Origin: Nannobrachium achirus
Lineage: Eukaryota > Chordata > Actinopteri > Myctophiformes > Myctophidae
Assembly: GCA_963921795.1 (NCBI GenBank)
Contig: OY997658.1
Span: 30,815,363-30,879,362 of the forward strand
Direction of reading: 5' to 3'
Length of the DNA: 64,000 nucleotides
Shown: positions 9,023-62,230 of the stretch, one piece after another
How positions within the stretch are numbered: the first letter of the stretch is position 1
How the letters are laid out: each line of letters opens with the position of its first letter
Translations under genes and position numbers: made by a program
The notes under the pieces: model-generated
What the model saw: only the letters and a program-made list of their open reading frames with translations
Database searches by the model: none
Told to the model about the DNA's origin: nothing

Positions 9023-9917
9023 ATGAGGTCCACTCCGGAATTCAAAAGTTGAGTAAAAGTACCAAAGTATTGATAGCAAAATGTATTTAAGCACCAAAAG
9101 TAAAAGTACTCATTATGCAGAATATCCCATTTAAAAATAAAAGATCTACAAGCTCATAATGCGTCGCATTGTGAGCTTGTAGATCGGCTATTTTCAAATG
9201 GCCGAAGTTTATATAGGGCTGAAGTTGTTAAAGCTATACTGTGTAAGATGCTCAACTAGTGGTCAGTAGCCCTATAGCAAACGCGGGTCGCGTCCGCGTC
9301 TTTCGGCCGTGTTTCGTACCTTCACACCCCCGCGTCTGCCTCCTCCTCGCCGAGATCTATCTTTAGAGGGGTCCCTGGTTCCTGTGCGTTCAGGCATTCC
9401 GGAGAAACGGACTACTTCACCCTGCCTGGTAGGCGAGATTACCTTTTGAGTATAGAGACACACAGGCGACTACAAATATTGCCGCCATAGCGACCCCACT
9501 TCAAGATGCGCTGTGATTGGCCGGCAGTGTATAACCCTCGCTGTGATTGGCCGGTAGTGTGATGACGTAATTTTTCTGCGAAAACAGGGGCCCGGTCAGG
9601 ATCATAGAAAACATATAAAGAGAAGGCTTTAGAAGCTGAAAATAATGGAGTGGGTGTTCTAAAACTTTAGCGATTTAACAGTTAGGACAATTTTAAGATT
9701 TGTTTTATAAAAAAAGTTACATGGTATAACTTTAATGTATGTTTTAATAATAACCAAAATCTACAATGGAAAAACTAGCTAATGTTTTCAGATAAATGTA
9801 GTGGAGTAAAAGCACAATATTTGGATCCGATATGTAGTGGAGTAGAAGTAAAAGTACTGGAAATTTAAGTAAAGTACAAATTCCTCAAAATTGTACTTAG
9901 TTACTTTACGCCACTGC
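9023..9917. mobile_element. hAT-like non-autonomous element (AGTAAAAGTAC family), left end missing
   Basis: Contains GAGTAAAAGTAC, GTAGTGGAGTAAAAGCAC and a right end TTACTTTACGCCACTG, shared with the copies at 22865, 28721, 39834 and 47271. The left terminus CAGTGGTGG is absent; the 2-kb repeat abuts instead. Inside are a member of the dispersed hairpin family (9131-9196) and a GC-rich block at about 9260-9600 not seen in the other copies. Confidence 0.65.
9131..9196. repeat. Dispersed hairpin family member
   Basis: Arms GATCTACAAGCTCATAATGCG and its near complement meet at a TCG centre, with one mismatch in the inner arm. The outer right arm continues GATCGGCTATTTT; the left outer arm is decayed. 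Inserted within a hAT-like element. Confidence 0.8.
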
Positions 9918-10040
9918 TATAGTCAGGTATACATAATGTATAAGTAGATAGCAATAGAGGCATATGTATTTGTGTGCATTCTGCCACCAATACAAAATGC
10001 ATAAAAATAGATCACTTCTATTGACTGAGTTAGCATAGGG

Positions 10041-10415
10041 CAGGGGTCGGCACGGGTGCCAACATTGGCACAGGGGAGGGTAATCACTGGCAGACGTGTG
10101 AGAGAGAGGATTTTTATTTTAAAATCAAATATTGTTTTAAAAGTGGTCAATTCAATTATGTCACCTAATTTGCAGCAAATCACATCCTGCACATAATCTA
10201 CATTCATTAAAATTTGACATGGGGAGGGAATCGGGGAGATAAGTGCAGGGTTATATCTCTGAGTCTAATGATCACTATAACAATATCCTGACAATGAAAA
10301 TATGTCTGCATTGTTGATGGGGTGTCATTAAAATTGATGCTGACAATGACATGGCACACTGACTATCTGTAAATAAAAACATGGCACTTAATTTCAAAAA
10401 GGTTGCTGACCCATG
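10041..10415. mobile_element. hAT MITE with perfect 8-bp TSD
   Basis: 375 bp, beginning CAGGGGTCGGCA and ending TGCTGACCCATG (imperfect terminal inverted repeats), flanked on both sides by GCATAGGG. No transposase frame. The TSD length and CAGGG terminus fit hAT. Confidence 0.85.
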
Positions 10416-10674
10416 GCATAGGGTATGAACTATTTGCCGATAAACACAGTGCAACCTATCGCCAGTGAAACTGACATTACGGCAGACATGCGGCGGTTAC
10501 TGCGTCATGCCCAGGAGATCGAACTTTGTCAAGCTGGATAACACAGTCACAAGCTGCAGAGCAGGGAGGCAATTACTGGTGTTAACAATGTGTGTTAACA
10601 CTTTGTTAACACATTGTGTTAATCATGTCTAGTGTCTAGTGTTGACACCGGCGTATGGCGACTGATGTCGCCAC

Positions 10675-10727
10675 ATGAGAGAGAGAGAGAGAGAGAGAGA
10701 GAGAGAGAGAGAGAGAGAGAGAGAGAC
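10675..10727. repeat. (GA)n microsatellite
   Basis: About 25 GA dinucleotides. Just upstream (10579-10625) is a short palindromic stretch built from GTTAACAC and GTGTTAAC. Confidence 0.95.
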
Positions 10728-10739
10728 AGAGAGTAAAAA

Positions 10740-11640
10740 ATAAAAACTAATTTCTCTCCACAGTCCCATCCCAGCGAGACATGAATGCAATAAGACAAAT
10801 AAACAGCAGTGATGAGACATGGCTTAAGACTCTGCTAGTGCTCTGCTGCATCTTATCTGTCTAAAGTGTCTACAGTATGTATGAGAGTGGAGCTTTGCAC
10901 CCTTTCTTGAAAATTGCCTAACAAATACTTTTCATTTTCAACAGTAAAAACAAGGAAACCATTTGCATGGAAATGTTTGGGAAATGTCACTTAAAGGACG
11001 GCCTGCCTTCATCCGAGTCCTCACTAATGTTCATGACAAAATGGTAGCCCACGATTGTTTTCCTACCCAATCTGTGTCTCATAAGAGACATTTCAGAAAC
11101 TCGCCTACCAGTGACATGATCAGCATTGTTAACTTTGTAAACTTTTTGTTCTGACAAAAGGATGAACAGTAGTGAAATCACACATAATTATAGCTTAGAT
11201 GTGTGATTTTACATCATGCCTTTGCATGACAATGATACAACTGCCATGTAGAAGTGTTTATTTGTGAGTCTGGAGATTTACCATCAGCTCTTCTGTAAAC
11301 TACGGAAATAATGCATGACAAAACATGTAATCTGCCAGACTTGAAACGAGCCTCCTGCCTGTTATCTTACAGCAAATGCTCTGTGGACTACTAATATATT
11401 GATGGGCCTGTGATTCCCCTTCCACTCTTGGCAGTGGCTGTGTGCCCAACTGAGCTGCGTCAGACAGAACTACATGTTATGACAACCTTATTAATCCTTG
11501 ATAACCCTAATGTGTTTTTATAGGCAGACAGGCAGATCATATATTTATATAGACTTTCGACAGTGGCTAGGAGCGGGGATGTGCAGAGAATGTTAGAGAG
11601 GCAAGGGCTGACATTTCTAAAAGGGACTTGTGGTGAAAAT
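10740..11640. other. No gene recognised
   Basis: Moderately AT-rich sequence with only short, composition-driven frames. No LINE motif or clear terminal repeats found. Confidence 0.5.
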
Positions 11641-59509: not shown

Positions 59510-60757
59510 ACAAATAGTAGTTTACTCTATTAAGACAAAGTTTTCAAGACATTACTTTTGCCATAAATGTTCTCACTTCCTCGCTCCAGGCAGCGCTCAG
59601 TACTCCCAGTAGGCCATTTCCTTTCACAAATGTCTTAAAGCAAACACAATTTTCTTGTGGTGTTTATGGTTTAATCAAGAACACACACAATGAAGAGCAG
59701 ATAGGGTGTCTGCCAGGTCCATCAAGTCAAATGTAAGACTTTAAACCCCTTTTAGACTATATTGTTGTGGATAATTCCATCCCACAGCACTGCACTTTAG
59801 TGTTTGATGTGAGACACTATGCAGGCTCTAGTGCACTGAGCATTAGCCTGTATAATGGTAAATAGAATTGTATGCAATGCGACAGAATAAAAACACAATG
59901 ACATGTAAACAATAGAAAGTAAGGGAATCAAACAATGCAGTTAAAAAAGAAAATGTAATTACGGAAGGGTAATTGTGTAAGGGTCGATTCATAAAATAAA
60001 ATAAATTAGGCTCTAAAAGTGGAGTATGAATCGATCCTAAGTCTTCATGCCGCTCGGCTCATTTGCCCGTAGTTTAAATGCATCAAAAATCAATAAAGTG
60101 TGCTTTGGTTGACTGGAAGTCATAATAGAGTCTAATACTCTGCCAAATGTGATCTATAGAGGTAAGAATTGTTAACAATATGTAGCGTGATATTGGACAA
60201 TAATTAGCAATGTGCCCCAACATCAGATCTAGCATACTGATTTTTTAGCACTTTTGGGCTGCCAGAATATCCACGTTCAGTGTCACAAAGTGACTGTGTG
60301 TTGACATTCTTGACTTTTTCTGCCACTACACATCCTCATTAAGAATGGGACGAAATGGGACGAAATTGGTGTCTAATTAAAGAGTATACGTGAGATTCCT
60401 CCACCAGTGTTCAAAACAACTGACAAATGTGTTCTTTGTAACTAATCACAGCTTCTCCATGCATGTCTCATATGAAACTGTAGTGAGACATATAACTTAT
60501 AGTCTTGCAGTCTTTTCGATTTTAAATTATTAGATTACGTTGATGCTGTTGCAGATCTGTATACATTCCCAAAGCATGAAGATTGTGTTATGATTTGTCG
60601 GAAAGAATAAGAATAATAAATAAATAAACGCTCGCACACTGAGGGATCCAATGCGACAGATACTTTATTGCACCACATCGAGCGCCACACTAAAAAAAAA
60701 AGCACTTTCTGCCATACTGTAGTTCTTTACCAGGCTGAGGAAAGAGGTTAGCTAATA
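59510..60757. other. No gene recognised
   Basis: AT-rich. No supported feature other than short A runs. Confidence 0.5.
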
Positions 60758-60836
60758 GTCTATAGCAGGGGTGGGCAACTTTGATGATGCAGAGGGCCTA
60801 TATTTTCACACTCACTCCAGAGGGCCACAATGCAGT

Positions 60837-60911
60837 CAAAAATAGCAGATCTACAAGCTTACAACGCATTGCAGAGCGACACGTTTTGAGCTTGTAGATC
60901 TGCTATTTTTG
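60837..60911. repeat. Dispersed hairpin family member
   Basis: CAAAAATAGCAGATCTACAAG pairs with the right arm CTTGTAGATCTGCTATTTTTG. The core has some mismatches. Confidence 0.9.
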
Positions 60912-61497
60912 AATTTGAATCCTGAATTATTTTCAGCTATTTTTTTTATTTGAATCCTGAAAAGTATTTATTTATTTATTGTTTTATTTGAAATTAATTT
61001 ACTGTATGTTCTATGTTAACTTTATGAGCTTAAATACAAATACATTGGACATAAAAAAAAAGACTAGTAATAGTCATTAAGCTACTAATATAGACTTAAG
61101 TAATTAAAGCGGGTCATGTTTGCATGTTTGGAATTGTAACAGCTGAAACTAGAAGCAGTGCTCTTCCGAGCACAGGTCTCCACCAGGCCACACAAATCGG
61201 CCTGTTATAGCGCCACCATGAGGCTGATTTAAAAAATGTGGGGCAGAGGTTCTGAATTAGCATCCAGGGAGTGTGTGTGCTCAGTTTGGCAGCGATCGGG
61301 CCAACGGCGCCGGAGATTAGCTGGTAACAACCAGGCCACACAAATCGGCCTGTTATAGCGCCACCATGAGGCTGATTTGAAAAATGTGGGGCAGAGGTTC
61401 TAGATTGGCATCCAGGGAGTGTGTGTGCTCAGTTTGGCAGCGATCGGGCCAACGGTGACTGAGATTAGCTGCTCACAAACTGCGAGGACGCACGGAT

Positions 61498-61551
61498 GCA
61501 CGCACGCACGGACGGACGGACGGACGGACGGACGGACGGACGGACGGACGG
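61498..61551. repeat. (ACGG)n microsatellite
   Basis: About 11 GGAC units. Confidence 0.95.
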
Positions 61552-61835
61552 AGGGGAAAACATACTCTCCCTCAGCCTTCGGCTGGTGGAGACAATAAAT
61601 ACTATATCAGTATTCCGATATCAACCAGGGCCGCATTAAGTGAAGGTGGGGGCCGCATGTGTCCCCCGGGCCGCTAGTTGCCAAGTGATAACAAAACCTT
61701 GAACCTTGAGATGTTATCCACCAGGTGTCAAGGAAGCTCAGCTGGATTTGAAGAAGCCCAGATAGTGATTATTTTAAGAGCTATTTTCCCTCCTGCTGGC
61801 AGAAGCATTTTACACTCCACTCAGTGCTTCTAGGG

Positions 61836-62230
61836 CAGGGGTCTTCAACATTTTCAGGCCAAGGACCCCTTAGCTGAGAAAGAGATGAAGCAGGGACCCC
61901 TTCTACATACTGTATAAATGCGTTATGCTGATTTCCATCGATTTTACAGATAGATTCATAGACTTGTTTGACAGCACACTCATCAGTCTATGTTGGATTC
62001 GTGTTTTTAGTCAACTTGACCTTTCACTCTGTACTTGGTCTGCTCTTTTTTTTTACCTCTACACCAAACCTATTTGCTTGTAGATCTGCTATTTTTGGCC
62101 AAAGTTCTCCTCAGAATAGGGATGTGAGGGTACAAGTTGTTAATTTAAAAGAATGATTCTATCACAAAGTTTTGGCGGCCCCACTGTAGTAACGCCCTAG
62201 GGGTCCCGGACCCGCTGTAGAAGACCCATG
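61836..62230. mobile_element. hAT MITE with perfect 8-bp TSD
   Basis: Starts CAGGGGTCTTCAACA, ends GTAGAAGACCCATG and is flanked by TTCTAGGG on both sides. Contains a half copy of the dispersed hairpin (62076-62099). Confidence 0.87.

What the first reader, a model, noticed from the sequence alone, without database searches (positions are those of the whole stretch)
9131..62099. Dispersed hairpin family whose arms co-vary between copies, found inside unrelated host repeats
About 18 loci (11 complete or nearly complete, starting near 9131, 11644, 12951, 24096, 29406, 36902, 37877, 40903, 43500, 49444 and 60837; 7 partial) share an AATAGCAGATCTACAAGCTC arm and its complement around a GC core. 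Seen directly: where copies differ, both arms often change together. Examples are GATCTAC/GTAGATC to GACCTCC/GGAGGTC (11644, 43500), CTCACAACGCG to CACACAACGCC with matching opposite arm (49444), and ACAA/TTGT to AAAA/TTTT (29406). Hosts include at least three different hAT families and sequence with no other repeat. Paired change means either selection on the stem (a transcribed hairpin), repeated repair of one arm from the other, or spread of a palindrome-making element. I know of no named fish element with this form.
Basis: partly seen in the sequence, partly recalled or inferred. Interest (0 to 1): 0.78.

Follow-up and report, generated by a model that had tools for sequence, protein, structure and literature searches.

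The report
Palindrome hitchhiking inside hAT mini-transposons
A 71-letter DNA hairpin occurs more than 118,000 times in this large genome because it rides inside several unrelated families of small cut-and-paste transposons, and its matched arm changes and flipped centres look like the work of DNA-copying slips between its two arms.

Summary
The window holds 9 long hairpins, 2 shortened ones and about 8 remnants. Genome-wide, 118,562 places have both outer arms exact (reversed-pattern control 688). Arm covariation is strong: in 10 copies, one per host, 19 cells change on both sides against 5.3 in shuffles (0/500).

Copies are not independent insertions. Most sampled copies share a host repeat with others. 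Four hosts are hAT-type MITEs by inverted ends and perfect 8-bp duplications. Of 21 host copies with both flanks, 18 hold the hairpin and 3 a remnant. Paired changes lie mainly between families; within them they barely exceed chance.

The direct mechanistic mark is the 3-nt centre, found in both orientations within families: 53 reverse-complement copy pairs, 0 reversed, 0 complemented. In one subfamily: ACC 3,635, GGT 2,078, control TGG 0. With host-specific stem extension in several hosts, this favours template-switch repair of a hitchhiking palindrome. Arms (4.0%) diverge slightly less than far flanks (5.0% and 8.1%): selection is not required, mild constraint not excluded. How the hairpin reached unrelated hosts is open.

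The parts
9134..9196 (.). hairpin, 63 nt, host A (repeat with AAAAGTAC tracts; hAT identity not shown)
11642..11716 (.). hairpin with GACCTCC/GGAGGTC arms, host F
12861..13402 (+). host B: hAT-type MITE, 542 bp, ends CAGGGGCGTCACAAGG / CAGGGGTGTCGCACCA, perfect 8-bp target duplication GCTCTGAG; carries two hairpins
12953..13023 (.). first hairpin of host B (ACAGCGCGGCAC core)
13208..13259 (.). second, partial hairpin of host B
22809..22841 (.). hairpin remnant
24094..24162 (.). hairpin, canonical arms, host A
27031..27084 (.). weak hairpin remnant
29420..29485 (.). hairpin with CAAAAC/GTTTTG arms, host D (target duplication shown only in copy L013:5549-5944)
36888..37092 (.). imperfect ~205-bp palindrome around a half-hairpin (36973-37006)
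37736..37947 (.). host B copy: half-hairpin at 37736 and hairpin at 37878-37947
38503..38548 (.). hairpin remnant
38776..38807 (.). half-hairpin of a host B relic
40899..40964 (.). degenerate hairpin, no host repeat found in the sample
43500..43540 (.). shortened hairpin (17-bp stem), host F
44805..44856 (.). hairpin remnant, one flank of the host E class
49442..49517 (.). hairpin with CACACAACGCC arms, host C by its inner flanks (ends and duplication GTCATCAC shown at L020:5318-5892; the outer part of this copy differs)
60839..60909 (.). hairpin, host D
61836..62230 (+). host E: hAT-type MITE, 395 bp, ends CAGGGGTCTTCAACA / CATGGGTCTTCTACA, target duplication TTCTAGGG; holds an 18-nt hairpin remnant near 62074-62097

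Best explanation
The hairpin is a passenger palindrome inside several families of non-autonomous hAT-type transposons (MITEs). SHOWN: four host families have hAT-type ends and 8-bp target duplications; the sampled host copies with both flanks carry the hairpin or a remnant of it; most sampled copies share a host. INFERRED: hAT transposase moves the hosts and the hairpin is copied along with them. Over time the near-perfect palindrome folds during replication and the new strand briefly copies the opposite arm. This template switching makes arm changes symmetric, extends the stem into host flank, and turns the 3-nt centre around; folding also makes the centre prone to loss. New MITE families founded from such copies therefore differ by paired changes. 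UNKNOWN: how the first hairpin entered each unrelated MITE (capture during gap repair or replication restart, or a mobility of its own).
For: Genome count 118,562 with both outer arms exact, control 688. Hosts with perfect 8-bp duplications: B window 12861-13402, B L016:3541-4039, C L020:5318-5892 (same ends read in L016 and L019), E window 61836-62230, and D L013:5549-5944, whose ends match less well (4 of 13 letters differ). In window plus 20 unselected loci, 21 of 21 host copies with both flanks hold the hairpin (18) or a remnant (3). Short-gap copies: host P 26, nearly all with different junctions and some hairpin or stem letters left (by eye); host C 223, about four in five of the 100 listed likewise (by eye). 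Covariation, one copy per host (10): 13 pairs and 19 cells changed on both sides against 3.9 and 5.3 shuffled, 0/500; 14 copies, three of them host D: 14 and 25 against 5.7 and 7.8. Centres in both orientations: 53 reverse-complement pairs, 0 reversed, 0 complemented among 362 pairs; ACC 3,635, GGT 2,078, TGG 0. Stem continues into host-specific sequence: mean run 3.3 against 1.2 in cross pairs, 0 of 5,000 permutations as high. PMC8794818 names compensatory changes, stem extension and inverted loops as template-switch footprints (abstract, section 7 and passages read).
Against: Within families C, M, E and A (56 copies) double changes are few: 4 paired and 2 unpaired; about 2.5 would be expected from the arm rates (my arithmetic), so correction in place is slow compared with copy age. 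One paired change tested genome-wide exists at a single locus. Pair 9/63 (pos 10) is unpaired in 6 of 10, 8 of 14 and 27 of 56 copies, although whole-arm copying should erase it. Loop orientation was judged against these marks or host flanks, so part of the signal could be swapped marks. Stem extension is absent or short in several hosts and singletons (F, B, the E representative, L039, L050). Hairpin-less host C copies form a clade of their own (support 0.919) and could be a pre-insertion lineage. End scans gave nothing for most entries: hits in 6 of 26 (two discounted: L018 with other ends and a 7/8 duplication, L004 inside a long inverted repeat) and one exact duplication among 24. Hosts A, F, M and P are therefore not shown to be hAT.
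Confidence: 0.6

Rival explanations
1. The hairpin is itself a minimal palindromic transposon (about 70-90 bp) that inserted independently into several hAT MITEs and other sites and was then amplified by the MITEs.
For: Same arms in unrelated hosts; 23 of 146 copies have no repeated flank in the sample. Host C and L058 both read AAACTA-GTGAAAA...TTTTC-ACTA, compatible with a 4-bp ACTA duplication, and nine of 100 listed short-gap C copies read TTTAAACTACTTTTG.
Against: No constant target duplication across hosts by eye; matching flanks are inverted rather than direct. L115 (TTTAAACTACTTTTG) nests with filled copy L076, so a CTA-microhomology deletion gives the same junction. Host P shows no common empty junction in 26 copies.
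Confidence: 0.25
2. Purifying selection on a transcribed RNA hairpin (small-RNA source or structural RNA) keeps the stem.
For: Covariation; centre (36%) and pair 9/63 (23%) far more variable than inner arms (3.7%); arms (4.0%) somewhat below far flanks (5.0% left, 8.1% right, beyond 30 bp).
Against: The gap between arms and far flanks is small, and in family M the arms (4.0%) exceed the left far flank. C>T and G>A changes on the oriented strand are similar (C family 6/8, M 9/7, E 6/9, A 6/4), so no strand-specific G-U tolerance. No Rfam match in the window. Centre inversion is not predicted. More than 118,000 copies make selection on each implausible.
Confidence: 0.1
3. Selection acts only on source copies: a perfect palindrome helps hAT MITEs to transpose or amplify, so founders are always near-perfect.
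For: Family representatives are near-perfect palindromes with similar arm sequence (92% of cells paired), while single-arm changes accumulate in copies.
Against: hAT MITEs need no such hairpin as far as known (recalled); does not explain reverse-complement centres; hairpin-less C copies exist and some form a clade.
Confidence: 0.2

Closest known systems
hAT-superfamily MITEs
   Same: Hosts B, C, D and E: 395-575 bp, CAG-type ends, perfect 8-bp target duplications
   Different: The shared central palindrome occurs in families with unrelated ends and internal sequence
gadMor-hAT-1784, palindromic hAT-derived MITE of Atlantic cod (PMC12368964; passages read)
   Same: Non-autonomous hAT element with internal inverted repeats in a teleost
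   Different: There ~600-bp inverted repeats made of 167-169-bp units; here a 34-bp-arm hairpin shared by several families. Sequences were not compared
Template-switch mutation hairpins (Monttinen and Loytynoja 2022, PMC8794818; abstract, section 7 and passages read)
   Same: Paired arm changes, stem extension, inverted loops
   Different: Described there in RNA genes, where loop inversions were rare (69 loop-only cases, 6 with a compensatory change); here both loop orientations are common within families of repeat copies
Fold-back / Galileo elements (PMC4168063; search listing and start of abstract only)
   Same: Palindromic DNA elements (recalled); compare L004 with two hairpins in ~270-bp inverted arms
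   Different: The hairpin is 71 nt and sits inside other transposons

Membership tests
hAT MITE (host elements) | short terminal inverted repeats beginning CAG (type recalled) | tested here: met
   B, C, E; D with 4 of 13 letters differing; no convincing ends for A, F, M, P
hAT MITE (host elements) | 8-bp target-site duplication | tested here: met
   five copies of four hosts with perfect 8/8 duplications; most scanned copies gave none
hAT MITE (host elements) | moved by a hAT transposase | not testable with these tools
   inferred from ends only
hAT MITE (the hairpin itself) | own hAT ends and 8-bp duplication around the hairpin | tested here: not met
   flanks read next to the hairpin show no constant duplication (by eye)
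Independent palindromic MITE | precise empty sites and constant target duplication | tested here: inconclusive
   possible CTA/ACTA at host C, none at host P; host M search did not complete
Template-switch hairpin | loop inversion | tested here: met
Template-switch hairpin | paired changes arising within one locus | tested here: inconclusive
   4 paired against 2 unpaired within families; no orthologous loci available
Structured RNA family | match to a curated RNA family | tested here: not met
   Rfam 15: no match in the window at gathering thresholds

The most novel reading that the evidence does not exclude
The hairpin is a protein-free 'palindrome maker': a self-perfecting sequence that spreads between unrelated transposons by template switching or capture, turns host flank into inverted repeat, and so helps to seed new palindromic MITE families. 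In more than 118,000 seemingly unconstrained copies it would be a natural assay of template-switch mutation.
Probability: 0.2. Interest if true: 0.8.

Novelty: new variant of a known kind. Interest (0 to 1): 0.55.

Why it matters
Compensatory change in a stem is usually read as strong evidence of RNA function. Here is a very large family of hairpins with no sign of function in these tests, yet with strong covariation and common loop inversion, which warns against that reading. It also offers a dataset for measuring template switching, stem extension and palindrome loss in a large eukaryotic genome, without the loop constraint that PMC8794818 (section 7) gives for the rarity of loop changes in RNA genes. 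One module shared by several hAT-type MITE families also asks how MITEs exchange internal sequence.

Tried and rejected
Set aside: strong selection on every copy. A first comparison (arms 3.7%, flanks 9.6%) suggested constraint; by distance much of the flank excess lies within about 20 bp of the hairpin and in patchy clusters, and beyond 30 bp the difference is small on the left and moderate on the right. The confidence of the RNA rival was raised from 0.07 to 0.1 on this recheck. Rejected: 'part of one transposon family' (different ends). Not concluded: an 8-bp direct repeat TTGAAAAA beside the host B hairpin, seen by eye in A-rich sequence. Led nowhere: Rfam; arm letters in papers (0 papers); paper searches; an 18-letter arm piece in viral contigs and genome contigs (1 and 2 places, not examined further). 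Asked for but did not complete: filled counts for hosts C and P, short-gap copies of host M, the single-arm count for the change, and the pattern.
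Full report
OBSERVATION. Ten of 11 folded stretches beat every shuffle; 40890-40975 is weak. The window lies in an unnamed 1.66-Gb assembly. There the 22-letter inner arm (up to 2 mismatches) occurs 141,247 + 140,178 times (control 0), and the pattern with both outer arms exact occurs at 118,562 places (control 688). 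The tool notes that counts of repeats are lower bounds.

SAMPLE. I used the window, eight loci of 3 kb, 20 unselected loci of 10 kb, 73 short regions around places listed, and seven around places listed. The list is the first 100 places of contig C1, not a random sample, and is selected for intact outer arms; the places are selected for one intact inner arm. The set gave 170 hits, 146 of them at least 46 bp long; 124 passed the length and E-value filter for the arm table.

HOSTS. Reading flanks outward sorts the 146 copies into repeated flank pairs, about nine of them distinct by my reading; 23 copies have no repeated flank in this small sample (one class there chains hosts B and F). Four hosts are hAT-type MITEs with different ends and perfect 8-bp duplications: B (window 12861-13402, GCTCTGAG; L016:3541-4039, TTGTCCAG), C (L020:5318-5892, GTCATCAC; the same ends read in L016 and L019), E (window 61836-62230, TTCTAGGG) and, with less similar ends, D (L013:5549-5944, CATTAGGT). 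Most other scanned copies gave no ends, and one C copy (L018) gave different ends with a 7/8 duplication, which I discount. Hosts A, F, M and P are not shown to be hAT. Host B carries two hairpins. In window plus unselected loci, 21 host copies (C 7, E 4, B 3, D 3, A 2, F 2) had both flanks: 18 held the hairpin and 3 a remnant or shortened form; hits to one flank alone were not counted.

LOSS. Host C with at most 30 letters between its flanks occurs 223 times; about four in five of the 100 listed keep different hairpin remnants, and nine read TTTAAACTACTTTTG. Of 14 of the shortest copies fetched, some nest among filled copies (L115 with L076, L123 with L095) and nine form a clade (support 0.919), so amplified deletion and old empty site cannot be told apart. 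Host P has 26 short-gap copies, read by eye as deletion derivatives; two are identical, the shortest is ambiguous, and there is no common junction.

COVARIATION. In ten copies, one per host or singleton, 92.1% of cells pair, and 13 pairs and 19 cells change on both sides, against 3.9 and 5.3 in shuffles (0/500); slid controls give at most 4 and 4. A set of 14, three of them from D-type hosts, gives 14 and 25 against 5.7 and 7.8 (0/500), with the count of further pair types less extreme (3/500). In 58 copies (56 distinct) it is 107 cells against 32.5 (0/500), but 15 pairs against 10.7 (3/500) and 33 types against 29.3 (11/500). The tool warns that shuffles ignore relatedness. Within families C, M, E and A the double changes are 4 paired and 2 unpaired, close to what the arm rates give. 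The change CTAC to CTAG on both arms of host C hairpins exists once in the genome. So paired changes belong mainly to family founders.

RATES. In 60 of 62 copies of families C, M, E, A and P, inner arms differ from consensus at 3.7% and 3.6%, pair 9/63 at 23%, the 3-nt centre at 36% and adjacent 50-bp flanks at 9.6% and 9.5%. By distance (which keeps only flanks under 15% divergent), flanks are 8-13.5% within 20 bp; beyond 30 bp they pool to 5.0% on the left (100/2008) and 8.1% on the right (128/1574), with one patchy bin of 15.6%; arms are 4.0%. The arms are thus equal to or somewhat below ordinary flank, and the unusual parts are the centre, the odd pair and the edges.

LOOP INVERSION. Oriented by host flank, centres in one family are often reverse complements of each other (ACC/GGT, GTT/AAC, AGC/GCT, GAT/ATC): 53 copy pairs, against 0 reversed and 0 complemented, among 362 pairs from 51 copies with 3-nt centres (five of 56 copies had other lengths). 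Pairs are not independent. Oriented by the marks at pair 9/63, the exact host C hairpin occurs with ACC 3,635 times, with GGT 2,078 times and with the control TGG 0 times. Point mutation does not do this readily; template switching does. [quoted passage not shown]

STEM EXTENSION. Beyond the shared arm, the two flanks of one copy match outward for a mean of 3.3 letters against 1.2 for flanks of different copies (0 of 5,000 permutations), with host-specific letters: CACTAGTTT in C, CACAAT in M, CAGCAC in P, ATTTTTGG in L074. Host F, most host B representatives, the E representative, and L039 and L050 show 0-1 letters. The 43 representatives include several from one host, so the significance is overstated.

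VERDICT. The hairpin is an abundant passenger of hAT-type MITEs. Template switching is the best account of its symmetry. Its first entry into unrelated hosts is unexplained, and an independent palindromic element remains possible. No paper holding its arm sequence was found, within the open-licence library only.

Noticed in passing
L018:2345-3744 (G000:C10:12000001-12010000, unselected stretch): A run of half-hairpins, each ending in GAGCTTGTAGATCTGCTATTTTT-like sequence, among tandem-like repeats: a local array of one arm only.
   Followed up: no
L004:1273-1800: Two hairpins inside one inverted repeat with arms of about 270 bp: a palindrome containing palindromes.
   Followed up: partly
L027:4155-4226 and 7345-7416: Two hairpins with identical arm changes and 99% identical right flanks 3.2 kb apart, suggesting a local duplication.
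   Followed up: no
hairpin pair 9/63 (pos 10): One stem pair is often unpaired (A in one arm, C in the other) across several families although the rest of the stem covaries.
   Followed up: partly
window 63222-63914: 118-bp tandem repeat, 5.7 copies, containing ACAGGAAGTGCC.
   Followed up: no
window 25478-25729, 50641-50997, 61182-61478: 130-148-bp tandem repeats sharing a TAGCGCCACCA motif.
   Followed up: no
window 29739-31460 (-) and 32437-33177 (+): Open frames matching reverse transcriptase (RVT_1), probably LINE remnants.
   Followed up: no
window 6505-7035 (+): Frame matching the NNMT/PNMT/TEMT methyltransferase family, probably an exon.
   Followed up: no
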